A stretch of DNA of 64,000 bases from Antedon mediterranea. Its lineage: Eukaryota; Echinodermata; Crinoidea; Comatulida; Antedonidae. The notes beneath the pieces are model-generated. The model did no database searches. It was given only the letters and a program-made list of their open reading frames with translations, and was not told where the DNA came from. The stretch is from assembly GCF_964355755.1 (NCBI RefSeq), contig NC_092679.1:16730932-16794931 (forward strand), given 5' to 3'. Numbering within the stretch: position 1 is the first letter of the stretch; each line of letters begins with the position of its first letter. The translations under genes were made by a program, and so were the position numbers. Below are positions 15,231 to 48,269 of this stretch, one piece after another.

Positions 15231-18200
15231 CTAAAATTTTGATATTTGAAGTTTAGAGAAGGACTTAAAGCATGTAGGGCACGCCCTTTTCTCGTGTAAC
15301 TCCATGCCCTTTGAGCAAATGTGGCAGATGATGTGCTTACAAGGTATATAACCAAAAAACCCTAAACTAACGCGTCGTGTGCATAGGACGCAGGATTCAA
15401 ACTTCGTCTCATCAGCAGTGTCCGAAAATGTTCGGTACTTCTTTACCCATTTTCTTTCTCTTTCATGAAAATTTTCGGAGCTCTGTCTGCGAAAGGTTTT
15501 TTCAAACCCTGATGGCGGCGTCCTCTCGACAAAACCAGTGGGCAATGGTTCGCCGTTGTCAGTCGTTTGACGGTATATCTCTGATAATGACTGTTCGTAT
15601 TCACCCGCCTTTTCTGGATGTTTCAGACGACTTTGGAATTCACGCTGCAGCGCCTGAAGAACACGGAAATTCAAGTCAATGAACCGGATCTCCAGCATAC
15701 GCCCCTTGGCTTGGAGGAACTCCTTTAACGCGTCTGTCATGATTCGTGCATACACATCACAGGGGAAGTAGAATCTTCCTGTAATATACAAAAAAAAACG
15801 TTCACATTATTAGACAACCTCGATTCAAATAAGTATGTCGAGTGCCCGAGCGATTATGACAGAGCACAGCAAACCAAAGCCATAATACCGGCAAAGGTTC
15901 GGCACTCCTCGGCCATAGTGGAGCAGATCAACCACTTTAAACTGGTACGGTGTATACTTACGGACTTGTGTGCACTTAAAAGAACCCAGAAAGAGTAGGG
16001 GGTGTTGTTCATTTTCTCAACAAGTCTACCAGTTGAATTACTTGCGTACAGAAAGCACGAGAGTGGTCCCCTATGTCTCCCAATTGCACAAAAAATAACT
16101 AATTATACAATAGTTATTTCTTTATAGTTTATTTAGTTTGTGAAGTATTTTCCATTTGACTTACCTGTGCCAAGACCAGGGATTGCTACGGAACTCACAT
16201 TCCGCGTGTCTCTAGCTTTCTGAAGAATATTCTTACAGCTCCGTCGCAGTTGTGACTCCAAATACGTCTGATCTTGATCGGCATTCCAATTGGGCATCAC
16301 AATAAAGAACACTTTGTTACATGGCAGAACTCCTTCTGATTCAATCTCAACAATTTGACCAACAGCTGGTAAACCGTAGGCATCCATCCACTCCAGACAC
16401 CTAGCGTGGATAATTGATCCACTGTTTTTATCAATAGTTGATGAAATTGCTCCTCCACAACTGAGTTCAACGTCATTGGAGCTTACGATAACTGCAGCAC
16501 GTTCTTTAGCAATATCTCCTCTTTTAACAGTTATGTGAACACCATTGAAAATGGTATCGTACATGTATGCCTCACTAGAACTACCGGTTGACTGAAAGAA
16601 ATTTCTGCTGAGGAACGCATGGAATCGAGGGTTCAAAGGTCGTAGCGTTGATGTTGGTGATGTTTGCTTACGAGAATGCCTGTCATGCTCCACTGGTACT
16701 GGTGATTTACTCGAATAATCTCTTTCCCTTCCATTAGCTTTGGAGGGGACTTCGCTATTGCGATAACCGTTACTTTTTAGTGAGTCGTCGCTACCATCAA
16801 TGCTGTCACCATATTCGTCGTTAAGTTGATGTTCATTTATTGGTTCTAACCATTTGTCACCAGTACTTGGTGGTGGGAGAGGTTGATCTTGACCAACGTG
16901 ATTTTGCGTCATCGTTTGATCAGCTAGTTGAGTTTGAGGTATGATGGCAGTTTCCACTTTAATAACCTCTTGATAAGAATTTCGTTCGACTTCTCTAGCA
17001 AGAGCTTCTCGCTGTTCCTCTCGTGCAATAGCTTCAATACGTTGTGCCTCCCTCGTCTTTATTTGTTCCAACTCTCGCGCATAGGCTTCCCTCAGCTCTG
17101 CTTCCCTAAGCTCTTCCTTCCGGCGTTCTTCCTCTGCATCTCTTGCTTCTTTTTCTTTTCTCTCAGCTTCCTCTTTTCTCTCCCTTTCTATTTTTAAATT
17201 TGTTTCTCTTTCCATCTCTTTTGATAACATATCCTCTGCCTTTTGTAGTTCTTCTTTAACAGCTTCACTTTGTCCATAAACCCGAAGGACGTTTGAATCT
17301 GATTGTCTGACAACCATCATTGTAACTATGTTCATCAAAGTACTCTCAACCGTTTCTCTGAAATTCTCGCTTACATCGAACTTTCCAAGATCAAAACTGT
17401 GCACTGACATTTCTTTCTCGATCTCGCTAAATAGCAGTTTTAGAAGATCAACCGCGTTGTCGACGTCTGTTTCAGTTCCTGGAACGCTGTCAGACAACGA
17501 TATTTCTACAGCACCGTTGTCCGTGCATTGTATTTTCACATAACATGTTTGTCGAATTTCATCTACCTTCATTGCATGTATGCTCATCGCATATCTTATA
17601 AGGTCTGGTTCAAACTTTACACTACGTGTTACATTGTCTGCTTTGGTATCACACTCCATGTTGTCACTGTCATCCTTGACATCATCTACCGCTACTTGTT
17701 CACCAGATGTCACTGGATTATAGTTCATAACATCTTGAATTTTAGTCTGTGAGCAAACATCATCTGGTAGTGGTGGTGCTGCTGTAGGTGGTGTTCTATT
17801 CTGTATGTGGTCTAACGGCACTTCTTGTCGACCTTCAGACATCGGCTCAATATCCATGTGTTCATCTTGATTGACTACTACGCCACGTTCATCAAACATA
17901 AGCCACTCTATCTTATTTCGAAGTTGAATTAGAATTTCAAAGTTACCGCTAAAATAACATCCAGTGTCTGTCTTTGTTGACTGTAACCCTAAGTTTAACG
18001 CCATCTCATTTATTCGCTCAAAGTAATGGTTTACATCTGGTAGCCATTCCTTTGTGATATTCACCGTAGTTTCACCAAACAATGAACCCTTAAAAATGAA
18101 AACAAGACGTTAGTTATTAATTTTTAATTATAAAAGATTAATAAAGATCTGAAATTCTGAAGATTGTAAAACTACCTTGAATTTATTGCCGTTGTCTTGG

Positions 18201-19513
18201 TTCTGATTATGTTCATACTCGTACAGTGTTTCGATCTTCAACGACGCCCCGAGGAAGTTGATGCCATTCTCTCTGGAGTAAGCGATGAGCTCGGTACATA
18301 CTGAGAAAATAACAAGTTATAATAGTATAATTTAGCATGCTTTTAAAACATGTTATTGGGTTACAGTGTAGCTCTGGTTGCTGCATGCTACGTAAGTTCC
18401 CTGTGTTATTGCCATAGTCATTTTACAATATATTATGGTATTGTGTTAGTAACTGTAGGTTACGTTTTTCAGAGTAAACAACCGTAAGGTTTGAACATAA
18501 TCAAAAGCTCTGTCTACACTATCAAACTTTATGTGACAAAAAAGTGTGATGTACCCGTATATGGTAGTGATATGCTTAAATATGGTAGTGATATGCTTAA
18601 ATATGGTAGTGATATGACATCATGTCCATATATGGGCATATCACATTTTTTGCCACATAATGTTTGATAGTGTAGACAGAGCTTTAACAACCTATTCCTA
18701 ATATTAAGTGCAATTAGTTTTGAATATAAATTCACTAGTGATATTAGTTGTTTGTCGGGACTTTTAAAACATCATTATACCAACAAAGCAATAACAGAAA
18801 ATCGATATTGCAATATAATATTTAAATTATACTAAAAATACTTGTGTGTGTATTGTCCCCCAAAAACATGAACAATGAATATTAATTACATCAGACTTTT
18901 AATAGGTTATTTTGTAGTTTTAATAAAGTTAACCCCTTCCATAAAAAAAATCAACAAAATAAATGTTTTCTCATATAAAATGACAAAATAAATGGTCAAA
19001 TTCAACCAAAAACCCATTTGCTGGCAGCCAATTTGATTATTTTTTGCTTTAAATTACAGTTTCTTCAGCTAAATAATTGTTTTCGATTCAATTTTTGTTA
19101 AAAGTGAATAACTATTATGTGACATTAAAATGGCATATTCAACAACAACAAAATTTAAAAATTATTTTTTCAGGGGGACATACTTTAAAATTGAACGTGA
19201 AATCCAACAACCATAATTATACAAAGTCAAGTTCACCTGACAATACAATGGCCTTCACTTAAATAGTATTAGACTGGTTTAAATAGTATATACTGGTTTT
19301 ACCTTTGCTTTCAAAAAACACAATGATGGCAGACGATTCATCTAGATACTCAATCCGCTCTATATAGCCCGCACAATTGGCGGATTTACTGAGGTATTCT
19401 TCTAGTTTGTTTAGGAGGTCGTCTTGATTTGACGGTAGGTTGCTTACGACTGCTGTACGTTCCAGTTCGGCAGCCAGCTCCTGGTCTATCCACCGATGCA
19501 AACGCTCTTCCAT
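15231..19513 (-). CDS. RRM - KH-like - macrodomain - RING protein (paralogue 1)
   Basis: Exons 19303-19513, 18176-18300, 16165-18088 and 15231-15778 join in frame to 935 aa. Residues about 10-105 form an RRM (RNP2-like TAVVSNLP, RNP1-like AIIVFFES). A KH-like region lies at about 270-395. A highly charged Glu/Arg coiled coil follows at about 400-485. A macrodomain spans about 624-800, with VIVSSND, SCGGAIS and the IPGLGTG loop crossing the last intron. A C-terminal RING (883-923) has CVLC, PCKH, CHIC and CPTC: all eight C3HC4 ligands are present. Macrodomains bind ADP-ribose and RINGs recruit E2 enzymes, so an ADP-ribose-directed ubiquitin ligase is inferred. A splice acceptor lies four bases before the ATG, implying an upstream non-coding exon. 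It resembles PARP14/DTX3L but has no PARP or Deltex C-terminal domain. Confidence 0.85.
18504..18686. mobile_element. MITE family 1, full copy with internal triplication
   Basis: Both termini are present (AAAAGCTCTGTCTACACTAT and GTGTAGACAGAGCTTT). Inside, the block TATGGTAGTGATATGCTTAA is repeated about three times. It lies in the first coding intron of paralogue 1. Confidence 0.85.
18849..19184. mobile_element. MITE family 3, copy A
   Basis: Starts TGTATTGTCCCCCAAAAAC and ends TTTTTTCAGGGGGACATACT, short inverted termini around about 300 bp. A second copy at 31097-31405 shares start, interior (AACTATTATGTGACATTAAA) and end. It lies in the first coding intron of paralogue 1. Confidence 0.75.
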
Positions 19514-20170
19514 CGTCCTAGAATAAACAGGACAAAAATACAGGCGTATTTAGGTATAATTAGGTAGTAGGCCTTTTATTAAGTCACCTCGATCGTAAAT
19601 AGATTTGGCCACTAATTCGAGGTACGGTCGGAATCTTAAATGTTTAGTCAATCATTATCACTTTTCAAAACTTCGTTTCTATATTTCTTTTAGATATACT
19701 TAAATACTAATTAATGCCTTAGAAGTCTATCGTGTGTTTACTATTTTTCTTTCGACACACTGTAGGTACTGTACTTTTTTAGTTACTATGTATATGATAC
19801 TATGTGTATAAACTCAAAATATAGTCTGAGGAGTGTTTCATTTCACTTGTCGCTGGTCTAAAATTCCGTTGAGAAATTTCTGTTATGTTCTCGTTCATAA
19901 TTGAATTGCTAAAACTATACTCTCGTTAGCTCCCGACGGAGTATAGTGTTTTCTGAATGTTTGGCGTTTCTCTCGGCTATTTTTACATTTTAGTTTTGAT
20001 TTAACCGTTATAGTTAATCATTTTCTAGCCCAATCTAAGCCCTTTTACTATATCCATGATACTATTTTACCCACAACATTGCTTTTTGTTTAGTAATTGC
20101 CTTTTACACAACAAATAAATCAATATGTTGTTATTTCCTGGTGAATATTCAATAATAAATATCTACTTAC

Positions 20171-20275
20171 ATGTCATCACTGAAGCCGTCAGTAGTAAAC
20201 TGTAGCTCCGGACTGCATGCATCCGGGCTATACCGAAACATTATGTAGGCGGAATCAACAAACTTATAAAAATCG
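20171..20275 (-). promoter_or_regulatory. Putative promoter and non-coding first exon of paralogue 1
   Basis: On the minus strand TTTTTATAAGTT (about 20260-20271) could be a TATA box. About 95 bases downstream a strong donor, GACAT|GTAAGTAG, ends at 20171. Splicing to the acceptor at 19517 would create a two-codon upstream ORF (ATG ACA TGA) just before the true ATG. Inferred from signals only. Confidence 0.45.
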
Positions 20276-21046
20276 CAGGAAGAAAGCACTGTCGTTTAAA
20301 TACCTGGAAGCGCCGAGGCCTGACGTTCAACTTCGGGTCATTAGTAATCTTTCTTTTACAAGTTGATCATAGAAGTGTGGATTTGTTTAATTCTCTTCTT
20401 TTTAAAATCGTTTTTAATGCAAATCGTTTCCAAAGCTAATAGTTATAAAAACTGTCACAACGACAATGCTGGCCTAGATTAAAGTAACTTTCAGTTAGGG
20501 CGAAGGTCGCTGTCTGTTCGTTAGTAGTTTACGGAACCTATAGTAGTACTGTATAGGCCTACAATAATGACTGTTTAATTAGGAGTGCAATGGTGCATGT
20601 ATTTTCATGAGATGATAATAGAATATCAAGTTAATCTTTCACAGAAATGGCTTTATTTCAAAGTAAATGCATTTCTTTTCTTGAAATGCAATAAACGATA
20701 CATATCTATCTATAAAATATCAAACAACTGGACGGAAAGTTGACGTGCCTCAACTTCACAAAACACAGTTTCCAATGATGCCGATACAGTTAATATTTTT
20801 AGCAAATTATAATTTCCATTTTATAGTTTATTTTCTAACTACAAATGTCAACTGCTTCGATTTTAGTGCTGATTGCTGCTTCAAATTATTATGTAGTTTA
20901 CCTTATATTTTATCAGCAAAATGATAATGCTGTTTTCGGACGGTTCAATAATTTCCGGTAACGGTTTGTTAGTATTTTCCGAGCATCTACATAATGTATA
21001 CACTTGCCTGCCACTAAAATATGTTAAAGCTATTTAAAGAAACACT

Positions 21047-22322: not shown

Positions 22323-25300
22323 TTAAACCATTGATCCTTGTTTTCCAAAGTCCACACTGGATCCAAATGTCTTTCGCAATTCGGTCAAAAGGTATGATTT
22401 CTGGTCAATCAGTGTGATATTCTTCAGAGTTGATTTTGAACTTAGTTCATCTTGCATGGCAGTTAACATCCCGTTCACGAAAACAGTAAGAGGATAATTA
22501 AAGGCTCCTGAAAACAATACAAGAATGGTAGATATAAAACTATTCTCAAAACTTAAAAAAAAACCAATTCATTATGTCTCCTAAAAAAGGCGGAGTTAAC
22601 ATACAGTAACTGATAACAAAATATTATCAAGTCATGCGAAAAATGAATTTGCCATTGTCATTTAAATATTATCAAAATAAATAGCTCCCTCTCTAACATT
22701 GCTATACAAATCATAACTAAATCTAAATAAAATGAGCATTGATGAAAAAATGAAATTCGTCAAAAATGTCGTTCCAATTGCAAAGGTTACATAGTTTATA
22801 TCATTGATTATGGCGTGTAAAGTATTCTAAAAAGAAAATACAACACCCACCTGTTCCTAATCCAGGTATTGCGGCTGACCTAGCTCCGATGTAATGTAAC
22901 GACTTGAGTACTTCTTTGCATAACCGAGTCATAATTTTACAGTTTTCTTCAAAAGATTTAAAAACGTTACAATCCGGCATTACAAGAAACATAATACATT
23001 TACACGACAATGATCCACTACTAACGTTGAAAACCTTTCCAGACGTTGATGGTATGTGCCTAATATACCATTTCTGGCATTCTTGTTTTATTACTTCACC
23101 ACCAGCTCGCAAAATGGCACTTGCCAAACCTCCTCCCATGATCATTTGGCAGTCTACCGAGCTTACAATTACATCAACTTGTTCCTTAGTGATATCTCCG
23201 ACCTTTCCGGTGATTCTCACGTTGTTGATGTTAAAGATATCATAAGGGTTACGAGAAGAGGAGGAAGAGGAATTGTTAGAAGGAGAAGGAGAATATTGCA
23301 ACTTTGGCTGCCAAAGTATAGGTTTATCGTGACGAGATTCCAGATAGGATTTTTCTGATGGTTGATAAGCAGAGCCTGCAGAATACGGATATGTGTCCTT
23401 GGTTACAGTTTTGTTGGGTTGTTGAGTTGGGTAGGACTGAGTAAACTTTTCTTCTTCCATATTTCTTGTGTCATGCGACGTAACGTGTGATGGCTGGTTA
23501 GAGCTGCTTGTCTGAAAATGGCGGTCATAGGCAGTCTTATTTGGGTACGACTGAGTCAACTTTTGTTCTTCCATATTTCTTGTATCATGCGACGTAACGT
23601 GTGATGGCTGGTTAGAGCTGCTTGTCTGAAAATGGCGGTCATAGGCAGTCTTATTTGGGTACGACTGAGTCAACTTTTGTTCTTCCATATTTCTTGTACC
23701 ATGCGACGTAACGCGTGGCTGGTTAGAACTAGTTGCCGGCAAAGACGGAGGTGTGTAGTGTTGAGACGTTTCTTCCTTCTTAAACTCATTCATACCGCTT
23801 GTACCACGAGAAGGCACTTGTGATGGCATATCAATGGCAAACGATTCATCAGGATCGTCCTCTTTTCCATCAATGCGACCGTCACGCTTTCCTAATCTAG
23901 GTCTACTTTCGTCATCTTCTTCTTCCGTCGTACTCGTGACACGTCTCATTTGACCTCCCTTCGCATCTTCCTCGTCAACTTGTGTATTGCCATCATCGCA
24001 CTCTTTAAACAACATGGATTTTTTTATCATATGTGATCTAAAATCACCAACTGCGTTCCAATCACCTTCCAACGTTACGAATTGCTCTTGTTTTGCGTTC
24101 CAATCTTCTTCCAATTTGAAAAACCTTTTTTGTTTTGTAAGGGTAAAAGAAAGGTCCAGTTTTATGGAGAGGTGTCGTAGAAACGATAAGTCATCATCTA
24201 GGATATACGGATGTTCTTTTGTAGAAATTGTAACTTTTACATTTTCAAACGGCTCCACGGTCTGAAATTGTAAAATTGTGCCCTGATAACAGTGTCTCAA
24301 TTAGTAAGAAGTTTATTTTATTTATTTACACAATTTCTCAACAAAATTACATTCGCTCCCCGTGCCCATAGACACCTTTTCACCATGGCTGATTTCTTTC
24401 ATCAATATTGATTTTGATGGCCAGAAAAAATAGCAATTCTTGCTTTAGAGAGGAAATATTGTACAGATATTGACTGCTTAGAGGTTAAATTAAGATTTTA
24501 CATCCCCGAGTGAAGGATATTTTGTTCGAGGAAATATAAAATTCCCCGAGAACATAATATCATTCCCGAGGGATGTCAAATCTTATATTTTACCGATATA
24601 ACAGGCGATATCTGTAATATTACATAGCCAAAAACAAGTAGAATATCTGCTGGGTCGGATCAGGGAGATGTAAACTACATTAGCTATCCGACCAGGGAGA
24701 TGTAAAATACATTACAGACTTGTTTACATTGGCAGACTTGTTTACATACAATACAAAAAGGAGGCCTAGCCTAGCTATCCGACCAGGGAGATGTAATGTA
24801 TTTTACATCTCCCTGGTCGGATAGCTAGGCTAGGCCTCCTTTTTGTATTGTATGTAAACAAGTCTGCCAAGACAATAATGTTTTATATTACATAGCCTAT
24901 GTAAATACGCGAACGTGATTGGTTGAAACTGCATCACATGACTACGAGGATCGTAATTCGTATATATCCTCGAGAACGATGATATTGACTGTGTAATTTT
25001 CGCGTAATTATCGTGTCCCCTGTCATTAATCATATAAATTCTCGAGTACGATGATAATGACTGTGTAATTTTCGTGTGCGACACTCGCGTTTGCCGATAA
25101 ATAAACAAAAGTCATCTACTGGTCTTGAACTTGCGATGCAATTGTCACTCCATCACACGACAACGCTTCAACCGCTGCGCCACAGAATTTGCTTGAAGAA
25201 ATTAATCTTCTAAACTATTTAAGCTATGCATACATAGCGCCCTCATTTATTATTAGTCCACCCTAAATGTGATGAAACACCGTTTGTGATTGGTCAATAC

Positions 25301-27613
25301 TCACGGTGTAGTAACCTAGTAACTAGTACGCGCTGAACATCCGGTGATTCGGCTCCTCGAAGAGAAGAAGAAGACGAATTTTTATTCGGCCTACCTGATT
25401 ATAATATTATTATTAATAGGCTTATTGATGGAAATTCTTCTGTTAATTTCAACGACCTAGGCCTAAGTGAATATTTTATTGCCAAGGAATCATTAATTAG
25501 TAATTATCTGTATATTATTCTTCGCAAGGTAAGGTGTCTAGGCAGGCTTATTTAAATACAAATAATATAGGAGGCCTAGCCAACCCAGCAGACTTGTTCT
25601 TGGCTATATAATATAACAGATATTGCCTTTTATATCGGTTAAATATAAGATTTGACATCCCCGAGGGGATGTCAAATCTTATATTTAACCTCTAAGCAGT
25701 CAATATCTGTATAATAGTTTTTGTTACAGAGGGCAAACAATGCTGTATCTTTGTGGCGGAAAAATAACGAGACTGAATAAAGTAGAAGTTCTTTTATGAA
25801 CTTATGTTTGTACCACAATAGTTGGTAAACTAGTAGCATTAAATACAAATAAAAATATATATGTTGATGTACTTTTGGCAATTTATTATTATTTATAATT
25901 GTTTGCTAAAGTTTTTAGGACCTATATAATTAAATATGCCGTGTGGTAAAATTATGTTTTGGTAATTAAGTGTGGTAACGATGTATTCAAAACAATATTT
26001 TAAAGATCTCTTTGTTTTTCTTTAAAAACAAAATTGTAAATTTATTTGTAATCAGCTGTACCAAATTAATTAAAAATATATAACACATTTGTAGATAGAT
26101 TAAGATATTAATGGAAGTACATTGATACTTCACTTACCTCTCGTTGACCCACGTCTTCTTTAAGTGTTTTTGAAACTCGAGTAGGCCTTAATTCCGAATC
26201 AGGTGTGACGTCAGAATTCTTCAACCGATATGTATCAAATGACATTGCTTCAACTTCAGATCCATGAAGTTGATGAGGACTCTTTTCAATAACCAAATCA
26301 ATCACTAAGAACATATAAATATGATTTAAGTAAACAAAATATATGCCCAAAGCATTATTGCTGTTTAATAATTTTCCTTTGTATGATACCGTATAGGCAT
26401 ATAACAATATGGCCTAAAGTTAAATGTGTAAACGTTACAGAGGGAAAAAAATGTTGTATCTTTATGGATGAAAAATAACGAGACTGAATATAACGTATAG
26501 AATTCGGCGTGCATTTCCCTTATGAAGTTATGTATACGTTTGTACCGCAAGCAGAATTCAATAGACATGTACGTATATTGTATAACAGATATTAACATAT
26601 TATTGCACTGCCATCATAAATGCATAATCATAAAAACTATATTGTACTTAATAATACACATTATAACCAAAGGTGACGTGTGCTTACCGTTCTCTTTGCA
26701 AAACGTAATTAATGCCGCATCTGTATCGATTAAATAAACGTGTTTGATATCTCCTCCGCCATTCTTCTGCTGTCTAAAATGTGTTTCAATTTGATCTGTG
26801 ACGTGTCTAATTCTTTGGATTCCCACTACCACTAACGACCGTTTCTTGTCACTATCGGTGAGTTCTTCTGTCACTGACAAAAAACTCTTGTATGACGACA
26901 TAAAAAAAAAATCATTAGAATTTTAAATTCAAAATTATTTTTGGTACGGATAATAATGTAAATGTCTTAATACTACTGTATTTCATTAAAGAATTAATTT
27001 ATTACCCTTACTTTCTGTACGTCATCTGTATTTGTAGGTTGGTTGACTTTAGACTTCTTCAGCATACTGCTTAATGACGTCACCTCGACTGTCTGTCCGT
27101 TAAGCTTATGCGAACCATGTTCAATAACCGATTGTATCACTAAAAATCAGAATGTACAATACAAAGCGTTTGATTAAAGAATAATCAGTTTGTCTAAATA
27201 AAAGATAATATCGAATGAGATGTTATTTATTATTTTGTATTGTACGCATATAGGGTGCCCAATATTCGTTACATTATAGTGCCTTGTAGTATAGACAATT
27301 TTAGAGAGAAAAAAGAAACATCTGACGACCGGCCGGAATGTAAACAGTGAATTAGGACAATTAATTGTGTAAAATTAATTATAGTCACATGTATTATTTG
27401 CCTACCTTTTTCTTCGCCAAACGTAATTAATGCCGTGCTTTTGTCCAGCATTATAATCTTTTCAATGTCCCCTCCACCATTGACCCGTTTTCCAAAGTAT
27501 ATCTCAATTTTATCTTCGTTAGTTAATGTCGGAATTTCCGATACCAGCACCGACCGTGTCTTGGCGCTTTCACTGAGTTCAGCCATCAGTGATGACATTA
27601 CGTATTCCGACAT
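22323..27613 (-). CDS. Two-RRM macrodomain protein lacking a RING (paralogue 2)
   Basis: Exons 27406-27613, 27012-27139, 26688-26886, 26138-26304, 22851-24261 and 22323-22507 join in frame to 765 aa. RRM1 is at about 15-105 (SVLVSEIP, GGGDIEKI, ALITFGEE, then VIEHGSHKLNG from exon 2). RRM2 is at about 115-205 (SLVVVGIQ, GGGDIKHV, ALITFCKE, VIEKSPHQLHG). A low-complexity linker contains three 39-aa repeats. A macrodomain follows at about 575-760 with VIVSSVD, a full MGGGLASAI loop, VMPDCN and IPGLGTGAFNYP. The final exon completes the macrodomain and stops soon after, so no RING is present, unlike paralogues 1 and 3. Intron positions and phases match the paralogues. Start at 27613 follows an acceptor AAAG; an upstream exon is possible. 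RNA and ADP-ribose binding are inferred from the domains. Confidence 0.85.
23451..23742 (-). repeat. 117-bp coding tandem repeat in paralogue 2
   Basis: TTCTTCCATATTTCTTGT recurs at 23451, 23568 and 23685, a period of 117 bp (39 residues). Two units are nearly identical and the third partial. In the protein each gives a segment with SSNQPSHVTSHDTRNMEE and SYPNKTAYDRHF. The in-frame period shows that expansion kept the protein open. Confidence 0.9.
24729..24870. repeat. Perfect 68-bp inverted repeat, 6-nt loop
   Basis: Bases 24729-24796 and 24803-24870 are exact reverse complements, separated by TGTATT. The arms contain GGAGGCCTAGCCTAGCTATC. Parts of the left arm also recur just upstream (24650-24728), suggesting stepwise inverted duplication. 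Confidence 0.95.
25118..25190 (-). repeat. tRNA-derived SINE head or tRNA pseudogene
   Basis: The minus strand reads GTGGCGCAGCGGTTGAAGCG (A-box-like) and, about 35 bases later, AAGTTCAAGACC (B-box-like). An acceptor stem cannot be formed convincingly, so it is not called as a functional tRNA. Confidence 0.5.
25727..25830. repeat. Dispersed repeat (copy 1 of 2)
   Basis: GTTACAGAGGGCAAACAATG followed by GTATCTTTGTGGCGG and AAAATAACGAGACTGAATA matches 26435-26550 closely. It abuts the long inverted-repeat element, so it may be part of the same transposon family. Confidence 0.65.
26435..26550. repeat. Dispersed repeat (copy 2 of 2)
   Basis: Second copy of the repeat at 25727-25830, sharing GTTACAGAGGG, TGTATCTTTATGG and AAAAATAACGAGACTGAATA. 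It lies in intron 3 of paralogue 2. Confidence 0.65.
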
Positions 27614-27693
27614 CTTTAAAAACGACAGGAAAAATAAAAAATATTAAGTAACTTTGTGTACTATTGAACAGTAGGTCTTTCTAACATTGAAAT

Positions 27694-28252
27694 GTGTTGA
27701 TATGCGTCGTTATTTGTCGACTGCGTCGTTACGGTATTTGTCGATATGCGTCGTTATTTGTCAATATGCGTCGTTATTTGTCGACAAGCGTCGTTATTGG
27801 TCGACATGTGTCGTTATTTGTCGACATGCGTCGTTATTTGTCGACCATGCGTCATTATTTGTCGACATGCGTGGTTATTTGTCGCCCATGCGTCGTTATT
27901 TGTCGATATGCGTCGTTACTTGTCGATATGCGTGGTTATTTGTCGACATGCGTCGTTATTTGTCGATATGCGTCGTTATTTGTCACTATATGCGTCATTA
28001 TTTATCACTATGCGTCGTTATGTGTCGGTATACGTCGTTATTTGTCGATATGCGTCCTTATTTGTCGACATGAGTCGTTATTTGTCGACATGCGTCCTTA
28101 TTTTTCGATATGCGTCGTTATTTGTCAATATGCGTCGTTATGTGTCGGTATACGTCGTTATTTGTCGATATGCGTCCTTATTTGTCGACATGAGTCGTTA
28201 TTTGTCGACATGCGTCCTTATTTGTCGACATGCGTCGTTATTTGTAGATCGA
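27694..28252 (+). repeat. 20-bp minisatellite with 120-bp higher-order repeat
   Basis: The unit is about GATATGCGTCGTTATTTGTC (20 bp), some 28 copies. The blocks 28021-28130 and 28141-28250 are nearly identical, an exact 120-bp period from a recent six-unit duplication. No frame contains stops over long runs, which explains spurious open frames. It sits just upstream of the first coding exon of paralogue 2. Confidence 0.95.
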
Positions 28253-28930
28253 TAACGGAGGAGTAGGCTACTGTATAAAACCAACTTAGCAATCTTAATT
28301 AATCCTAATTATTTCTATCTAGGAATCAATCTGGTATGAGAAAATCCTTGATGGCACACATTGAACAAAAAAAAATTTCCCAAACAACATGATGGAAAAA
28401 ACATTTTCTTATTTCTGTTTCAAAATGTCTTTGTAATGTCTATGTATGCCATGAAGAAATAAGTAGCTGTGGATAGGCCTACTACTAGTACTAGGTATAT
28501 ATATGGCCTACTATCATTATTATATTATTTTATTGTCCTACCTTTTATGGTTATGCTTCCATTCTTTGTACCCACGCTATTGTTGGAGGTTATTTGCATT
28601 TATCAAACAAATACTGATTACAAAGAATTGAGAATATAACAGTGGTTGTACGGCTGATACTGTATGTACTTTAGTATATTTGCCTTTACATTATTGTAAC
28701 GATTAAGCATTCTATACACTTTTCATGTTTATCGATTACGTTACGGTGGCCTACTGTTAAATAGGCCTATCTATCGATCCTATAGCCTACGCACAAACTA
28801 AATTGAACGGACAAACACTGTATAAATTAGCCTATTATAGTATAAAGATAAAACTGTTACCGTGTAAAACGTATCTTCTTACATCGACGTCAGACTCAAC
28901 AAAAATGGAGTTTTTGTATTTGTATATATT

Positions 28931-30153: not shown

Positions 30154-32621
30154 CTACTTTGTCGTAATCACTTTTACAAATTCTGTAATGAAAAAACACA
30201 TCGTTACTTCCTTTTTGTAGAGTTTTTCAAACATTCATTTTAGGCCTCTAAAGGTACGCGAGTGGATGCCGTTTGGATGTGTGTAGAGTATCATAATAAT
30301 GGGTAGTTAAATGTAAAAACGAGTACGCGACTGTCATGTGCGATGTAAACAATATTTACGTTCGTAGTAGACTTGGCCATCGCCATCAATGCCTGCATCC
30401 CTGATCATTTCATTCACTTTATCATCAGTCAACTTCTCACCAAGGTTTGCCATCACATGCCTTAATTCAGCAGCGCTAGAAATAAACAATAAAAGAATAA
30501 ACGTAGATGGAAGAATGACTTGATAGGTTGATTCGTTAAGCTCTGTCTACACTATCAAACTTTATGTGACAAAAAAATGTGATGTGCCCATATATGGACA
30601 TGATGATGTCATATCACTCCCATATTTGGAGACATTATAAGTGTTTTTGTCGAACTAGTTTGATAGTGTAGACAGGGAGCTTTACACAAGTTGGCTTATC
30701 ATAGTTGTGCTCCCATCAACAGACAAAAGAGGATCTATACGGTAACTCGTGCATTATCGAAACCGTTGTATGTATGGAAATATTCCTACAGAAGTCCGAT
30801 CCTGACTTTCTGATTTCGTTTAATCGTGAAATTCGAATCAACAATTTTTTGCGTAGTGCTTGCGCAGGCGCAGATTGATTTGTTTACAAAGTGAGCGAAG
30901 CTTGCGCGTTGCATGTTTACGTGATCTGCGAAAATCCCTAATATCGAAAAATCTTACCTGATGTAACCACTGCTGTCTTTATCAAACACACTGAAAGCGA
31001 TTCGAATCTCTTCTTCAGTATCTGTGTCCTTCAATTTTTCAGCCATTATTGTAAGAAATTCTTGGAAATCTATTGTGCTGTCAACTACCATTTCATGTAT
31101 TGTCCCCCAAAAACATGAACAATGAAAATTAATAAAATATAACTTTAAATAGGCCATTTTAGTAGTTTTAATAAAATTGTTCACTTCTGTAAAAAAAGAA
31201 GTATTTAAATTATAAGAAGACAAACGAACCGGTTAATTTTAACCAAGAAACATTGTCTGACCGACAATATTTTTTGCTATTACATTTTTTTAGGTAAATC
31301 ATTTTTTTTCGATCCAGTTTTTGGTCAAAGTGAATAACTATTACGTGACATTAAAATGGCATTTCAACAACAAAATTGACGAAAAACTATTTTTAGGAGG
31401 ATAATATAACTTTATACTAAATGTTTCTCTCGGATAATTGAATCTAATGAATGTTCATATTGACGAAATGTGGACGGGAAAAACCAAAACTTACAGTCAT
31501 GATCGACGACTTCATCGATCATGTCCTTGAGTTCTGCCTCTGTTGGGCTCTCTCCAAGAGATCGCATGATAGTTCCGAGTTCTTTAGGGGTGATGGTAGG
31601 CCCACCATCCTCATTTTTGTCAAATAAGAAGAAAGCCTCCTTAAATTCTGAAAAAACCCAGTGTACCGATTTAAATAAAATATTATCTGTTTTTATTATG
31701 TATTTATATTGTTTATGTGGAAATTTTCCCTTGATGACATCAGTAGGTAATAACATTGAAATAAAAATACTAAAATGAATGTGTACACAAAAATGCCAAA
31801 CTGTAAGCTATACTGTATATTTCATTCACCCACAACAACTTCGCGTGCTACACGCTGGTGGTATACGAATCTTGGTTCCGCTTTGAAAGGCGAATTGATT
31901 ATGTTTTGTTTAGCGGTTTGAAAATTATATCTGTTGATTTTTAGGCCTGTAACTCGTAACGTTTCTTACCTGCAATTTGCTCCTCTGTAAATTGATCAAC
32001 CTAAATAACGATTGTGTACAAAACATTAAGCATTTAATAGTATCACACAATATTTCAATACTATGAGTTAGGATACCTTATAATGTTTAGATACTGTATA
32101 CAAATTAAATCGATTGTTTGTTTTTTTTGCTGTATGTCCACATTTACAACTAGGCTGTGGCATCATAATAATATTGATTTTATAGTGTCATATCCGCAAA
32201 AAAGTACTCATGGCTCTCTCAAGTTAACAATAGAGGGAGAAAGGGGATTCCAAGTCTGTATTTTCGTTTCGAATTTTGTCTGAAAATACAGTTAACAAGC
32301 TCAAGTAGTATACGTATGAAATGCATATATGCAAAATATTTATATTTTTACTAATATTAGGTCAAAACTCCGTCTGGACTACCAGAGTTTCTCGGTTCGA
32401 ATTTATTGTGGTGGGCCATTTCAGATTTTAGAGCAACGGTATAAAAATCTCTTGAACCCAATTGTTTTCGTGGTCGGCGCTGTTCTTCAAGAAGTTGTCA
32501 GATGAACGCATCATTTCCATAATTTGTATTGTTCACTAATTAACAATTTCAGCCCAAACAATGACCTTCGGCTGTGTATGACAAATAGCCTACTACACGC
32601 TATCCTACTAACACTCACCAT
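30154..32621 (-). CDS. Divergent calmodulin-like protein (tandem duplicate)
   Basis: Exons 32619-32621 (ATG only), 31970-32000, 31495-31647, 30958-31084, 30360-30475 and 30154-30182 join in frame to 152 aa. Exon number, positions and phases equal those of the calmodulin gene upstream, so this is a tandem duplicate. EF-hand 1 ([14 protein letters not shown]) has a two-residue insertion in its Ca-binding loop. EF-hand 2 ([12 protein letters not shown]) and EF-hand 3 ([12 protein letters not shown]) keep their ligands. EF-hand 4 ([12 protein letters not shown]) has lost Asp at position 1 and Glu at position 12. No stop or frameshift was found. The acceptor of exon 4 (31085-31087) is only 10-12 bp from a MITE and lacks a pyrimidine tract, so efficient splicing is doubtful. 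It is either a calmodulin-like protein with two working sites or a gene early in decay. Confidence 0.82.
30537..30684. mobile_element. MITE family 1, full copy
   Basis: Both ends are present (AAGCTCTGTCTACACTATCA and TAGTGTAGACAGGGAGCTTT) around GTGCCCATATATGGACATGA. It lies in intron 4 of the calmodulin-like gene, about 60 bp upstream of exon 5. Confidence 0.85.
30871..30918 (+). repeat. Dispersed 46-bp repeat, copy B
   Basis: GATTTGTTTACAAAGTGAGC followed by CTTGCGCGTTGCATGTT, nearly identical to 13752-13797. It lies about 40 bp beyond the exon 4 donor of the calmodulin-like gene. Confidence 0.6.
31097..31405. mobile_element. MITE family 3, copy B
   Basis: Starts TGTATTGTCCCCCAAAAAC like 18849 and shares its interior (GTGAATAACTATTACGTGAC); the far end is degenerate (TTTTTAGGAGGATAATATA). 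Its left end is 12 bp upstream of exon 4 of the calmodulin-like gene on the transcribed strand. Confidence 0.75.
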
Positions 32622-32755
32622 TTTAAAATAGGTAGGCCTACAGTAGGCAGATGATATCGAGTAGTAATGGTATACAATTTAATTGGTAAGACGAATCGGT
32701 GACTGCATAATCACGTACAACGATAATATATTTATCAAGTAACAAACAACATGTA

Positions 32756-33565: not shown

Positions 33566-37905
<4,340 letters not shown>

Positions 37906-41264: not shown

Positions 41265-42070
41265 TGCTGATCGGCAGTGACCTTTTCACGCTTACCTGAT
41301 CGGCAGTGACTTTTCTACTCTTCCCTGATCGGCAGTGACCTTTTTCACTCTTCCCTGATTGAGAGTGACCTTTTTTCACTCTTCCCTGATCGGCAGTGAT
41401 CTTTTTCACTCTTCCCTGATCGGCAGTGACCTTTCACTCTTCCCTGATCGGCAGTGACCTTTGTCACTCTTCCCTTATCGGCAGTGACCTTTGTCACTCT
41501 TCCCTGATCGGCAGTGACCTTTGTCACTCTTCCCTGATTGGCGGTGACCTTTGTCACCCTTCCCTAATTGGCAATAACCTTTGTCACTCTTCCTTGATCG
41601 GCAGTGACCTTTTTCACTCTTCCCTGATCGGCAGTGACATTTGTCACTCTTCCGTGATCGGCAGACCTTTGTCACTCTTCCCTGATCGGCGATTCGGCAC
41701 TGATCTTTATCACTCTTCTCTGATCGGCGGTGACCTTTGTCACTCTTCCTTGATCGGCAGTGACCATTTTCACTCTTCCCTGATTGGCGGTGACCTTTGT
41801 CACTCTTCCCTGATCGGCAGTGACCATTTTCACTCTTCCCTGATCAGCGGTGACCTTTTTCACTCTTCCCTGATCGGCAGTGACCATTTTCACTCTTCCC
41901 CGATCAGCGGTGACCTTTTTCACTCTTCCTTGACTGACAGTGACCTTTTTCACACTTCCCTGATCGGCAGTGACCTTTTTAAATCTTCCCCGATCGGCAG
42001 TGACCCTTTTTCACTCTACCCCGATCGGCAGTGACCCCTTTTCATTCTTCCCCGATCGGCAGTGACCCTT
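41265..42070 (+). repeat. 30-bp minisatellite (about 27 units)
   Basis: The unit is CTGATCGGCAGTGACCTTTT plus TCACTCTTCC. Each unit carries a small inverted repeat, AGTGA ... TCACT. The period is a multiple of three and several frames lack stops, giving spurious open frames on both strands. Confidence 0.95.
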
Positions 42071-42785: not shown

Positions 42786-43605
42786 TAAACTAGTAGGCCT
42801 GGTTAAAGATTAGTGTAAAAGGCATTCCATGCGTTACAGGCGGTTAAGGCTTATATATTATACAGTAACAATTATAAGATACCTTAAAACTAATGAATAC
42901 CATGATCTACAAAAGTATAAAGTGGAATAATGATTGTATTATAATATGGATGTTCTAATCTCTAATAACATTATATGACTAGTAAAGTTATTATATATAT
43001 TATGTAGTTTCAACATTGTTTAAATATTTTAATAATACTGTAATAATATACGAATGTTTGGAGTATCAACTTTCCCATTATGATTATACACATGTTAGCA
43101 TACTAAGTGGACGCCATTTATATCGATTGCAATGATTAATATCAAGTACCATAATAAGATAATACGTGGAATGTTGGAGTCCACCAGCGGACGTTTTATC
43201 GTTTGATAATGTACGGTTGATAAAGATTTAACAACCCGTTCCATTCATCATAAACATTGACGAGTATTTATTTATTTATAGGCCTATACAGTATACAATT
43301 TCACAGTGTAAAAGGCAGTTTAGATCTAGAAGATCAGGTGATCTTTGCTTTAGTTCAAGTAAGATTGTTTGGCAATCAAGGTATATTTAGCAAATCATAA
43401 TTTGGTACATTTATTTACATAATGCAAGACATTTGACATTTACATGTTAAGACCAACCTGCGGTCATGGTGCATGCTATGTTATGTTTTGTTGATTGTAT
43501 ATTGTTAAAATAATTGTTTATGTATGTGTTTACAAGGCGGCTCCTTGATCACAGTATCTGCTATTTGTTGTTAGCCACAGTAAACAAAACACTCTATTCT
43601 AAATT
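42786..43605. other. 3' flank of paralogue 3
   Basis: AT-rich DNA downstream of the stop codon. An inverted AATAAA-type signal (TTTATTTATTT) lies near 43266-43278, about 330 bp beyond the stop, and could end the transcript. Nothing else was recognised. Confidence 0.4.
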
Positions 43606-46600
43606 CTACTTTAGTGGCTTTCGGCAAACACCACAGTTTTGATTGTTACTTTCTAATTGTCGGAAACAACTTCCACAACATGCGTGCGAACAGTACACTG
43701 GAGACTTCTTATTCCGCAGAGGTCCCCAACAAATTGGACATTTCTGATCATGATCGCTGGCAAACTGATCTGTAGGCCAAGCATTACTGTGTATGCCTAC
43801 ACTTGAGAGATTATCCTGGAAGTCTTCTTCAAGAAATGCAGAAGAGAAGTACCCAGTATCCATTGAACTTCTCGACAGTAATGTTGGATCACTAGTCGGG
43901 ATATTTGTGTTCAATTGCGGCAATCTTTCTTCGATTAAAGAAATCCCCCTTTCATCCCAGTCTACTATTCGAATCTCCCTTACATGTTTAGTTGGTTTCA
44001 CCAAGAATCTAGAAAGTGCATTTACAAATGATTTTGCAAAAACACTACGTGGTATACCATAAGAAGCTGTAGATCAAAAGAAAATGGTGTAAGAAAGTCA
44101 ATACACAAGAAATAATAAGCAATACTGCATGCTTTACGAGTATACCATCATTATGTCACTTTTAAACTACGCACTTTTGCCGCAACGCAACGTAAGCACA
44201 TACTCTTCTATTAATTTCGCACCCCCCTCTTACGAAAAAATAAATGATCATTGTTGCAACGTGCGCAATATGTCTACGGCACCATGATTACGTCACTAGC
44301 TCTGGCACGCAAGGTTATATTCTTACGGCACTTTGCGCCGATACGTTGCGTCTACATCTTGTTGCGTCCTAATGAGAACGAAGCTTTAAGAGCGTTCTTT
44401 TGCAGCATATATAATTGATTGATAATGTTTATCTATACCCATAACTTGCCAACACATTATTAAAGACTTACCTGTTCCAAGAAGTGGCAGTACAATCGAA
44501 TTTGCAGAGAGATTATCTCGTCCAGCTTTAAATATTTTGAACAACATTCCTTCAAGAAGTTGTTCTGTGCCATATTCATTCCAACGAGGAACCACGGCAT
44601 TTACAACATGTGAGCAAGCAATGCCTTCATCAACGTCCACCCATACAATCTCACCATCTCTCACATTTCCATGATTCATGATCCAACGGGCACATTGTGA
44701 TTTGAACTTTGGCCCACAAAGTTCACTAATTTGTCCTGCAATACCTTGATTACATTGCAGTCCGTTATCTGATGAGCAGACAATGACACTTGCAAATTCA
44801 TCGAGGATGTTACTTTTTGTCCCGATAACTTTAACATTTTTAACTGTAATTTCGAAGATTTTACGACTACCAGAGCACATAGAATCGGAAAAATCACAAC
44901 CACCTCTCTGTCCATTACCTCTTTTAGAATTAGCTGAGGGAAACGATCTCTTGGGGATCACAGCACTATCAAACTGATGTCCATTTGTTATCCCTGTTGG
45001 TTTCCTACTGCTTGGTTGATGAACACTCCCATTACGTGGTAAGGGGTTTGTTCGAGTATCCGACGAGTTAGGCTTTACTTTTTGGACTGCTTGTGAAGTG
45101 GTGGCAGTCAAATATCTACTACTACCAGGAGAACCAAGCATCTCTCTAAATTTGGTCTTAGCAGAATTAATATCTTTACTCTTTCCATAGATATAGAATT
45201 TGTTTCCAATTACTTTTACCAATACAGATTTTGATTGAGTCAACTCTTTTTCTGCAGGAATATATTGCTTTGAATCTGCTTCCTCTGGTGTCAGGGTAAA
45301 CATTTCTTCTTCAGTATTTAACTCGATGGTGTCTGTTAAATTTCTAAATTCCTTAGTAGCTTCTTGTAGCCCCTTGGTATTATCAGATACATTTGATTTT
45401 ATGATAACTGCTGTTCCTTTTTGATTGATGGTAACTTTATTTTTTCGTTGTATGTGATCCAAATCACTGGAATGAACTTTTTGAACATAATTCAATAGGT
45501 TTTCTGATCCCTTTACCGTGTGTGTTGTACTTGAGTGTTGAAAATGAGTGTTACTATTAAAAGAATGAGTAGAATCTTGCGTGTCTTTACTCTTTGAGTC
45601 ATGTTTTGTTAATGAAGGATTGTTATGGATGCCTGTTCTCTTTGACGCCGTTGATGAAACTGACGTTGATGTTTTTCCACTAGAAGGTCCAAGCATCTGT
45701 TTAAGTTTACTTTTAGCAGCATCGATGTCAGGTCGTGTTCCATAGAAGTAGAATTTTCTTCCTACGACCTTCACCAGTAGTCGCATTGATTCGGTCAATT
45801 CTTTTTCGGCAACAAAATAATTCTTCGATTCTGCTTCTTCTAAGGTCAATGTAACAACTTCTTCTTTAGTCTCTGATGTAACCTTTTTTATTAAGTTCTT
45901 CAGTTCTTCAACAGCTTCATGAGTGTTATCGGATCCAACTGATTTGACGGTAACAGTTGTTTGGCTTGTCCTATCAAAATTTACTTTATTTTGACGTTGC
46001 ATCCGATCTAATTCTTCATGATGGAAAACTTGAATATAATTTAAAGCGTCCTCTTTACCTTGTACACTGATTGGTCGACTTGAATCACTGATTGTTTTTC
46101 TGTTGACACCTTTTGGTTTAGGACATTTCTCTTCTTCGTAATCCATTTTTTCACTGTCATCACTTGAAAATACATCTTCCACTTTATCTTTAAATTGTAC
46201 ATCGATTGTTGACCTGTTGGTACCTTTGGGTTTTGAACATTCTTCGTCACTTGAAAAAACATCTTCCACTTTTCCATTAGAATATACATCACATAGATTC
46301 TGTTGCCGACCGGAGTATCCACTAGTAGAAGTATGTGCCTCTTCTGACCTTTGATTAGAAACTTGCACTGTTCTTGTTTCATATTTAGTCTTCGAGTCGT
46401 GTTTTGTAGCTGTCGTTGAGTGATTGCTATTTCCACTAGAAGAGGTTGTAGACTGTGAAGACGTGGTGCCACTAGAAGATCCAAGCATCTGTCTAAGTTT
46501 GCGTTTAGCAGCATCGATGTCAGGTCGTGTTCCATGGAAGTAGAATTTTTTTCCTATGACTTTCACCAGTAGTTGCACTGAGTTGGTCAATTCTTTTTCT

Positions 46601-48269
46601 GCAGCAGAATAATTCTTTGATTGAGCTTCCTCTGAGGTCAAGGCAACCACTTCTTGTTCAGTCTCTGTTAACACCTTTTCAACCAGGTTCCTCAATTTGT
46701 CTGCTGCTTTATGAATATTACCAGAACCAGCTGATTTTATGATGACAGTGTTTTGATTTGTCTGATCAACAGTTACTTTGTGTTGACGTTGAATCCTATT
46801 TAAGTCTTCAAAATGGACAGCTTGGATATAATTCAATGCATCCTCTTTACACTGTATACTGATTGGTTGACTTGAGTCACTGGTTGTTGGTCTGCTGTTA
46901 CCTTTAGTTTCTGAGCTTTCATCTTCGCAATCCATGGTTCCACTGTCGTCACTTGAAAATACATCTTCCACGTCCTCATTAGACGATGCATTGCCTGTAC
47001 CTCTATGTTGTTGCCAAGTGGAGTAAGCATCGCTATTGGATGTGTATGCTTTTTGTGACGTTTGATGCCATTGAGTTGCAAACCGTTTCTCCTGAAACAA
47101 ATATTTAAAAGTTTTAAAATTGATTTTTTTTGTGGAAAGTTTTTATATATTAGATAACAAATCTTGTGAATAAATCCTTTAACAATCCAGGTATTTACTT
47201 TTGAAGACATCTATTAACAAATAGGAAACAAATTATTGTTGATGTTACACTACCATTTTGGTTGTCCTTGCTTCTTTGGTTTGTAGGTGAACTTTGACAT
47301 TTCCAATGACATGACACCTTGATGACCTCATTAACGAAGATGCCACTGTGATGGAAAATAAAAAGAAAGTGAAAACAAAATTATTTTACACATGTAGAGA
47401 GTTTTTGGAGATGCTTCTTTGTGAAGTATGATTAAAACAGCTCTGTCTTTTTTTGAATTGCCCCGTGTGGGATGATTAAAGAATTTTGAATTGAATTGAA
47501 TTGAATTGTCTACACTATCAAACTTTATGTGACAAAACAAATGTGATGTGCCCATATATGGACACGATGACGTCACTTTTTAGTGATTATTCAATCTCAT
47601 ATAATTTAGTGACTACTGTTTTACATGATATCCACTAATTAAATTTAAATTTACGACCACATCAATTCTATAAAGGGAATTTAAGTCATCTATGATCTTT
47701 GTTAATACAGTACAAACTTTATTGCGGCAATAGAGGGCAGTGTAGGGGTTTTTCTGTATTGGAAATGCAATTTGTCGTATTCGAGTGGGACCGTTGAGTA
47801 GTAATGGCATACTGACTCAATGGCATATTTATGATGTGTTTGTCCCAGAAGTTGATTGGCTGTGCTAGGGGTACGCGCTTACCCCTTCTGACATCTAACT
47901 ATTAATGTTATATGTATTGTTAGCGTTCTGTTTAAAAACAATCCTGGATTTTCCCGCCCCGCAAGATTTAAACCTACCGTCAGGATTATCAAACATGATA
48001 ACTGCTGTGTCTTCATCAACCCTTATGATCGTATTTATATCACCACCACCATTTCGTCTTTTTCCAAAGTAAAGTTCCAGCTTGTCCTCGCTGTACCCAT
48101 TAATCTCTTTGATACCAGTCACCAGCACAGAATTTGGATGCTCCACACACCTTACAGGATCCATCACACACCCTTCTATTCCGAACAAGACATGTACATT
48201 AGAGGGAATTGTCATTTGTGTTTTATCGGAACCTTTTCCCTTTACAATAGACATGTTTATGAGGTGCAT
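43606..48269 (-). CDS. RRM - triple KH-like - macrodomain - RING protein (paralogue 3)
   Basis: Exons 47978-48269, 47254-47345, 44472-47091 and 43606-44066 join in frame to 1154 aa. An N-terminal RRM (SVLVTGIK, LYFGKRRNGGGDI, AVIMFDN) is completed in exon 2. Exon 3 has three repeats of about 128 residues (about 206-333, 470-597, 655-782), each with an ALNYIQ-type start, a KVTVDQ strand, an AEKELT helix and VKVIGKKFYFHG; they resemble the KH-like domains of PARP14/DTX3L. The acidic motif VEDVFSSD occurs three times. The macrodomain (about 875-1050) has VIVCSSDN, QGIAGQIS, VVPRWN and LPLLGTG. The C-terminal RING (1111-1150) shows CPIC, CSH, CCGSC and CGVC with all C3HC4 ligands. Its glycine-rich ADP-ribose loop is poorer than in paralogue 2. 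Start: first ATG at 48269; a second ATG lies five codons later, and an overlapping out-of-frame ATG precedes both. Confidence 0.85.
44170..44385. mobile_element. Decayed MITE family 2 relative
   Basis: GCCGCAACGCAACGTAAGCA at the left and GTTGCGTCCTAATGAGAACG then AAGCTTTAAG at the right resemble, inverted, the element at 4180-8557. It lies in the last intron of paralogue 3. Confidence 0.5.
47440..47507 (+). repeat. LINE 3' tail fragment
   Basis: GCCCCGTGTGGGATGATTAA followed by four GAATT units, the same kind of tail as the LINE at 4340-8524. It directly abuts a MITE family 1 fragment. Confidence 0.6.
47508..47577. mobile_element. MITE family 1, left fragment
   Basis: Begins TGTCTACACTATCAAACTTT and runs to GTGCCCATATATGGACACGA; the right half is missing. 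It lies in intron 1 of paralogue 3. Confidence 0.75.

What the first reader, a model, noticed from the sequence alone, without database searches (positions are those of the whole stretch)
15231..48269. Clustered family joining RRM, KH-like, macrodomain and C-terminal RING in one chain
Three same-strand genes within 33 kb share one plan: N-terminal RRM(s), KH-like or low-complexity middle, macrodomain, and (in two) a C3HC4 RING at the very C-terminus. The vertebrate PARP9-DTX3L-PARP14 system spreads these parts over separate proteins and adds PARP or Deltex domains not seen here. A single-chain ADP-ribose reader, RNA binder and ubiquitin ligase, amplified in tandem, would be an unusual architecture and a plausible innate immune or ADP-ribose-signalling system. 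The domains are read from sequence; the function is inferred.
Basis: partly seen in the sequence, partly recalled or inferred. Interest (0 to 1): 0.88.

Follow-up and report, generated by a model that had tools for sequence, protein, structure and literature searches.

The report
One-chain macrodomain RING ligase family
A feather star carries a small gene family that strings RNA-binding-type folds, an ADP-ribose-binding-type domain and a ubiquitin-ligase RING into single proteins, and the same genome holds sister genes that look like the human PARP9 and DTX3L partners joined into one chain, which makes the origin and working of that immune pair testable.

Summary
Three minus-strand genes (A 20241-15231, B 27613-22323, C 48254-43606) join cleanly with one shared intron plan. 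A and C match deposited proteins of the crinoid Antedon mediterranea, C apart from its start; Anneissia japonica has close homologs of both. Parts: PARP14/NMI-type RRM, KH-like units (a gene C unit models as a KH doublet), a PARP14/PARP9-like macrodomain, and in A and C a C-terminal RING. No DTC or PARP domain was found in them. A hemichordate relative has the plan without RING. Elsewhere in the genome four of five Deltex C-terminal-domain places lie beside macro and RING; one joins into a frame of about 700 aa, RRM-KH-macro-RING-RING-DTC, its DTC closest to human DTX3L. Best reading: A and C are DTC-less cousins of a single-chain PARP9+DTX3L-like family, RING ligases with a probably non-hydrolytic macrodomain as reader. 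Ligase activity, ADP-ribose binding and immune role are inferred; descent from the DTC-bearing form is not shown. My nine library searches showed no description of either architecture. New variant of a known kind.

The parts
15231..20241 (-). Gene A, 5 exons (20241-20171, 19517-19303, 18300-18176, 18088-16165, 15778-15231), 960 aa: RRM, KH-like, KH doublet, long helix, macro, RING
   Evidence: identical over 960 aa to deposited A. mediterranea protein P0001
18176..19517 (-). Gene A RRM region, two exons split by a phase-1 intron
   Evidence: RRM_PARP14_3 15.6 bits, below cut-off 24; cut out alone, all 6 of 6 RRM rows match that model at E<=1
16165..18088 (-). Gene A long exon: KH-like, KH doublet, long helix, first part of macrodomain
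   Evidence: AF2 block means 69-91 over residues 290-430
15231..15778 (-). Gene A last exon: end of macrodomain and C-terminal C3HC4 RING (residues 908-948)
22323..27613 (-). Gene B, 6 exons (27613-27406, 27139-27012, 26886-26688, 26304-26138, 24261-22851, 22507-22323), 765 aa: two RRMs, KH-like stretch (by eye), low-complexity stretch, macro, no RING
   Evidence: own model only
26138..27613 (-). Gene B, two RRMs of NMI/IFP35-PARP14 type, each split by a phase-1 intron
   Evidence: RRM_PARP14_3 83 bits, NID 65 bits, 2 stretches each
22323..24261 (-). Gene B last two exons: low-complexity stretch and macrodomain, no RING after it
   Evidence: Macro 54.6 bits
43606..48254 (-). Gene C, 4 exons (48254-47978, 47345-47254, 47091-44472, 44066-43606), 1149 aa: RRM, three KH doublets, macro, RING; deposited start is 30 codons downstream
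   Evidence: identical over 1119 aa to P0003
47254..48254 (-). Gene C RRM, two exons
   Evidence: RRM_PARP14_3 35.6 bits, NID 34.1 bits in P0003; RRM profile in PDB: NMI 2.7e-11, IFP35 2.4e-07
45100..46880 (-). Gene C, three repeated units of about 130 aa (limits approximate), each a tandem pair of type I KH-like folds
   Evidence: alignment A2; AF2 of unit 1 pLDDT 92.6, beta-alpha-alpha-beta-beta-alpha twice; PDB fold matches
43900..44880 (-). Gene C macrodomain across an intron (limits approximate)
43606..43760 (-). Gene C C-terminal C3HC4 RING

Best explanation
Genes A, B and C are a crinoid branch of the animal PARP14/PARP9/DTX3L scaffold (RRM + KH-like + macrodomain). In A and C the scaffold ends in a RING, so each is most likely a single-chain RING ubiquitin ligase: the RRM and KH pairs bind nucleic acid and/or build oligomers, the macrodomain, which in A and C has lost a residue pair that hydrolases need, docks an ADP-ribosylated (or related) target, and the RING brings E2~ubiquitin to it. 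Lacking a DTC domain, they should ubiquitylate ordinary protein sites and not the ADP-ribose hydroxyl that Deltex ligases modify. B, with no RING, may act as a partner or brake. Sister genes on contig C4 carry RING plus DTC on the same scaffold, a one-chain version of what vertebrates split between PARP9 and DTX3L. Shown: gene models, domain order, homologs, intron plan, C4 sisters. Inferred: E2 use, ADP-ribose binding, nucleic-acid binding, immune role, and the direction of evolution.
For: Gene models and intron plan; deposited identical chains for A and C and Anneissia homologs. RRM profile closest in the PDB to NMI and IFP35, in Pfam to PARP14 RRM3. KH doublet by model and fold. Macro profile closest to a PARP14 two-macrodomain chain (8.5e-38 summed, first macrodomain alone 3e-21) and PARP9 (4e-21). 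RING: the 8 zinc ligands are exactly the invariant columns of 4 rows. Constraint between crinoid families in A: macro 91%, RING 89%, macro-RING spacer 81%, KH-like piece 73%, KH doublet 56.5%, coil and linker 52%. Hydrolase rule of PMC10221186 (section 3.1 read): Asn/Ser and Gly flanking loop 1, hydrophobic (A, T, I, V, L) then aromatic residue in loop 2. Loop 2 is R-F in A, K-F in its homolog, S-Y in C, T-C in its homolog: 4 of 5 fail; B keeps A-F. The full NAAN loop-1 motif of P0005 and of 10 of 11 C4 rows is absent from all five, though the Anneissia C homolog keeps its last Asn. Sisters: macro, RING(s) and DTC start in one open frame at L009, L011, L017; full DTC 202 bits after joining the L009 exons, best PDB match human DTX3L 2.8e-47.
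Against: No biochemistry. RINGs of A and C share only 10 of 46 residues, miss Pfam cut-offs on the full chains, and the AF2 model of A did not fold the RING. Macro loops are altered, in C above all, so ADP-ribose binding may be lost; the loop-1 part of the hydrolase rule allows Ser and cannot be judged cleanly here. In the macro tree A/B/C do not group with the C4 Deltex-type macrodomains, so descent from a macro-RING-DTC ancestor is not shown. RRM support in A is below the Pfam cut-off and the Anneissia A model has no RRM.
Confidence: 0.62

Rival explanations
1. Convergent RING capture: the RING of A and C was added to an RRM-KH-macro scaffold independently of the Deltex RINGs on C4, rather than kept after loss of a DTC.
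For: The hemichordate relative P0005 and gene B have the scaffold without RING; A/B/C macrodomains form their own group (87/87, A+B 94/91) apart from the C4 macros (88/89), though none of these forks earns the tool's star; A and C have a macro intron that the C4 single-exon macro-RING frames lack.
Against: Same order macro then RING as the C4 genes; RINGs of A and C match C4 RING-DTC tails (P0008 tail to A 2.5e-4, P0006 tail to C 0.001), though other RINGs might do so too; RRM intron phase shared with the joined C4 gene.
Confidence: 0.4
2. Nucleic-acid or protein scaffold ligase in which the macrodomain is a structural relic and does not read ADP-ribose.
For: The full NAAN loop 1 is missing in all three; C also lacks the loop-1 glycine pair and reads GTA where A and B read GTG.
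Against: A keeps GDI, GG and LGTG and its macro is 91% identical between two crinoid families; human PARP14 macrodomain 2, which also lacks NAAN in the alignment, is listed as a binder in PMC13224862 (passage).
Confidence: 0.3
3. Artefact: exons of separate genes joined by the first reader.
For: Introns reach about 1.0 kb in A and 1.9 kb in B, and the window has repeats.
Against: In-frame joins with conserved phases in three genes; identical deposited models for A and C, and Anneissia models with macro then RING in the same order; macro end and RING share one exon in A and C.
Confidence: 0.03

Closest known systems
DTX3L (Deltex 3-like E3 ligase), partner of PARP9
   Same: RRM and KH-like domains at the N-terminus, RING near the C-terminus; the KH_DTX3L model fits the hemichordate relative above cut-off. 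The joined C4 sister has a DTC closest to DTX3L.
   Different: A, B, C have a macrodomain, which DTX3L lacks (architecture as given in PMC13224862, passage), and no DTC was found in them.
PARP9 / PARP14 (macro-PARPs)
   Same: RRM_PARP14-type RRMs, KH-like domains, macrodomain closest to those of PARP14 and PARP9.
   Different: No PARP catalytic domain found; one macrodomain instead of two or three; RING in A and C.
NMI / IFP35 (NID proteins)
   Same: The RRM matches NID; best PDB sequence matches are NMI and IFP35.
   Different: NMI and IFP35 are small proteins without macro or RING (recalled).
Reader-writer ubiquitin ligases such as RNF114/RNF166, RNF146
   Same: Pair an ADP-ribose-related reader with a RING in one chain (RNF114: abstract of PMC12583694; RNF146 WWE-RING: recalled).
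   Different: Reader is Di19-UIM (abstract) or WWE (recalled), not a macrodomain; no RRM/KH scaffold (recalled).

Membership tests
Deltex family | Deltex C-terminal (DTC) domain after the RING | tested here: not met
   No DTC hit in A, B, C or the Anneissia homologs; credible matches of C4 RING-DTC tails in the window are to the two RINGs only; 0 of 13 genome DTC matches on C10
Deltex family | RING domain | tested here: met
   A and C, below Pfam cut-offs on full chains; B has none
Deltex family | DTX3L-type KH-like domains | tested here: inconclusive
   KH_DTX3L 0.011 in 1 of 5 units, KH_PARP14_8 best 0.017 in 3 of 5; hemichordate unit 33.8 vs cut-off 27.4; fold is a KH doublet
Macro-PARPs (PARP9/14/15) | PARP/ART catalytic domain | tested here: not met
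   Absent; the 4 matches on C10 lie at 3.6 and 4.3 Mb, window at 16.7 Mb
Macro-PARPs (PARP9/14/15) | PARP14-like macrodomain | tested here: met
Macro-PARPs (PARP9/14/15) | PARP14-type RRM and KH-like N-terminus | tested here: met
   RRM in B and C above cut-off, in A below; KH doublet shown for gene C units and modelled in A; in B by eye only
Active macrodomain hydrolases | loop 1 Asn/Ser and Gly, loop 2 hydrophobic + aromatic pair | tested here: not met
   Loop 2 fails in A, C and both Anneissia homologs (4 of 5); B keeps loop 2, so for B inconclusive; loop 1 not cleanly judged because Ser is allowed (rule from PMC10221186)
RING ubiquitin ligases | E2 binding and ubiquitin transfer | not testable with these tools
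   needs biochemistry
NMI/IFP35 family | NID domain | tested here: met
   NID above cut-off in B, C and P0004; macro and RING make membership inapt

The most novel reading that the evidence does not exclude
The vertebrate PARP9-DTX3L complex is the split form of an older single-chain machine. Crinoids still have it: RRM-KH-macro-RING-RING-DTC on C4 would read or remove ADP-ribose and ubiquitylate ADP-ribose within one chain, with one such gene within about 30 kb of a PARP catalytic exon of PARP14 type. The window genes are a second, rewired branch in which the macrodomain turned from eraser to reader and the DTC was lost, making a lysine-type, ADP-ribose-guided RING ligase.
Probability: 0.35. 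Interest if true: 0.87.

Novelty: new variant of a known kind. Interest (0 to 1): 0.68.

Why it matters
In vertebrates ADP-ribose reading, ADP-ribose removal and ubiquitin transfer in the interferon response are spread over PARP9, DTX3L and PARP14. Natural single-chain versions would act as a Rosetta stone for that complex, give compact proteins for biochemistry, and offer two matched series in one animal, with and without the DTC, to test what the DTC and the macrodomain each contribute. They also extend the macro/ubiquitin link to echinoderms.

Tried and rejected
Artefact of exon joining: rejected. Plain DTX3L or PARP14 ortholog: rejected for A, B, C, defining domains not found. Further family copies in the window (tblastn) or in 20 kb on each side of it (profiles on ORFs of 40 aa or more in L022-L025): none seen. 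KH units by sequence against the PDB: no credible match. Homolog search for gene C: of 7993 scored candidates only two hits at E<=10; low-complexity words are a likely reason, so absence elsewhere proves little. The first search used residues 660-960 of A (2 hits of 1836 candidates), the third residues 1-215 of P0004 (3 hits of 4538). Together the three returned five proteins, from two crinoids and one hemichordate; other echinoderm classes remain untested. Full-length AF2 of A: mean pLDDT 53.3, poor outside KH, long helix and macro. RING phylogeny not attempted: about 45 residues, 22% identity.

The genome search for RRM_PARP14_3 (PF23085) did not complete, so RRM-bearing genes are not counted genome-wide. 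Genome counts are exon by exon and lower bounds.
Full report
What is there. The window is 64 kb of a 354-Mb genome (C10:16730932-16794931). The joined proteins of genes A and C are identical to deposited proteins of Antedon mediterranea, a feather star (lineage): A over its whole 960 aa, C over 1119 aa, the deposited start being 30 codons downstream of mine. I built the three gene models before seeing these. All internal splice sites are AG/GT, all joins are in frame, and the three genes share an intron plan: each of the four RRMs is cut by a phase-1 intron, the RRM ends at a phase-0 intron, and the macrodomain is cut by a phase-1 intron at its LGT(G) loop. Gene B (765 aa) rests on my model only.

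Domains. Pfam on full chains gives Macro above cut-off in 5 of 5 proteins examined (A, B, C and the two Anneissia homologs), RRM_PARP14_3 and NID above cut-off in 3 of 5 (B, C, P0004), RRM below cut-off in A, none in P0002, whose deposited model starts after the RRM. RING models stay below their cut-offs in all full chains but pass in the single exons of A and C. The RRM profile finds NMI (2.7e-11) and IFP35 (2.4e-07) first in the PDB. The macro profile finds a PARP14 chain with two macrodomains (8.5e-38 summed; the first alone 3e-21) and PARP9 (4e-21). RINGs end A and C; across A, C and both homologs the eight zinc ligands are exactly the invariant columns. Gene C has three 130-aa repeats; Pfam gives only weak KH hits, but AlphaFold2 on 5 rows gives pLDDT 92.6 and the order beta-alpha-alpha-beta-beta-alpha twice. 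The top PDB folds are KH-pair proteins (Dim2, Krr1; further down FBP KH3-KH4 and Nova-1 KH1-KH2), with TM-scores of only about 0.4, which I put down to a different angle between the halves; aspartate kinases also appear from rank 32 on. I see no GXXG motif in the units. AF2 on full-length A supports the KH doublet (residues 290-430), a long helix (411-505) and the macrodomain, but not the RING and barely the RRM.

Conservation. Between the two crinoid families, gene A keeps 91% identity in macro and 89% in RING, 81% in the spacer between them, 73% in a 37-residue KH-like piece, 56.5% in the KH doublet and 52% in the coil and linker; gene C keeps 59% in macro, 43.5% in RING, 49% in the RRM and 23% in the spacer. 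So A is held most tightly at the two domains in question, while C drifts. Anneissia C has two RRMs and two KH units where Antedon C has one and three: domain copy number turns over. Both Anneissia genes are listed with the same longest contig of 1,575,412 bases, which fits linkage there too.

Relatives. The third protein search returned an acorn worm protein, P0005 (714 aa, Ptychodera flava): RRM, KH_DTX3L above cut-off, a macrodomain with canonical loops, no RING. By the residue rule in PMC10221186 (section 3.1 read) P0005 looks hydrolase-competent, while A, C and their homologs fail at loop 2; B keeps loop 2.

The rest of the genome changes the reading. Of 27 Macro matches genome-wide, the only three on C10 are genes A, B, C; 21 are on C4. 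On C4, three open frames each hold macro, one or two RINGs and the start of a Deltex C-terminal (DTC) domain with no intron needed to link them (L009:3783-5402, L011:1988-3343, L017:6135-7892); a fourth, L015, has macro, the start of a RING and a DTC downstream. Genome-wide 13 DTC matches fall into five places, four of them these; the fifth, on C3, reads to me as a classic Deltex RING plus DTC, with no Macro match near it. I joined the L009 exons: RRM half, RRM half, KH-macro-RING-RING-DTC exon, two more DTC exons, in frame to the stop, 702 aa as counted from the open frame, true start unknown. Pfam: DTC 202 bits over its whole length, Macro 92, two RINGs, RRM 15.7 (below cut-off 24), no KH model reported; the KH label there is by position and eye. 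Best PDB matches: DTC human DTX3L (2.8e-47, ahead of DTX1 and DTX2), macro PARP14 and PARP9. The RRM of this gene is cut at phase 1 and its second half reads VASSLIKAK, as gene C reads VASSLMRSS; candidate donors of two more C4 RRM exons (L009 upstream RRM, L017) are also phase 1, not confirmed by a join.

Descent. A macro tree of 20 rows puts A, B and C together (87/87; A with B 94/91), with human PARP14 MD2 as a long-branch neighbour (87/86), and the 11 C4 rows apart (88/89); none of these forks earns the tool's star, and 6 of 17 inner branches do. RING of A versus C is 22% identical. I therefore do not claim that A and C lost a DTC; capture of a RING by a P0005-like ancestor is a live rival.

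Mechanism. Established for the known families: Deltex RING-DTC puts ubiquitin on ADP-ribose using a His-Glu pair in the DTC (PMC7615817, passages); DTX3L is RRM, five KH, RING, DTC and PARP9 brings the macrodomains (PMC13224862, passage). Inference: without DTC, A and C can only be ordinary RING ligases, and the macrodomain is left to choose the target.

Literature. Nine searches of the open library, eight on this subject and one on the species, listed no paper that I could recognise as describing RRM-KH-macro-RING or macro-RING-DTC chains. I saw listings; passages of PMC10955461, PMC11080071, PMC4245714, PMC7615817, PMC10221186 and PMC13224862; section 3.1 of PMC10221186 and the evolution section of PMC13224862; and the abstract and outline of PMC12583694. 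PMC4245714 and PMC13224862 report clustered PARP14-like genes in the lancelet, so clustering as such is known. Subscription papers and domain-architecture databases were not searched, so prior mention cannot be excluded.

Noticed in passing
11836-12525 (+): Exon matching ADP-specific phosphofructokinase/glucokinase (PF04587, 7.9e-74), an ADPGK-like gene next to the cluster.
   Followed up: no
5021-8145 (+): Overlapping long open frames that read like a non-LTR retrotransposon (endonuclease and reverse transcriptase by eye; no profile run on them).
   Followed up: no
8669-9566, 27675-28266, 41420-42034: Short tandem repeats open in several frames.
   Followed up: no
30155-31700 and 36193-36555 (-): Calmodulin-like EF-hand exons between genes B and C; one tested (31412-31807, EF-hand E about 1e-4), the rest by eye.
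   Followed up: partly
53807-55339 (-): 510-aa open frame with a protein kinase domain and a serine-rich N-terminus (PF07714 6e-21).
   Followed up: no
24600-24900: Inverted repeat inside the long intron of gene B (seen by eye).
   Followed up: no
L009:8024-10000 and L011:7395-9998 (-): KH_DTX3L (below cut-off) plus macro frames just upstream of each macro-RING-RING-DTC frame, a duplicated pair on C4.
   Followed up: partly
L015:4029-8832 (+): Two macrodomain exons followed by a RING start and a DTC: possibly macro-macro-RING-DTC in one gene, even closer to PARP9 plus DTX3L; exon joins not worked out.
   Followed up: partly
P0004 versus P0003: Numbers of RRMs and KH units differ between the gene C homologs of two crinoids.
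   Followed up: partly
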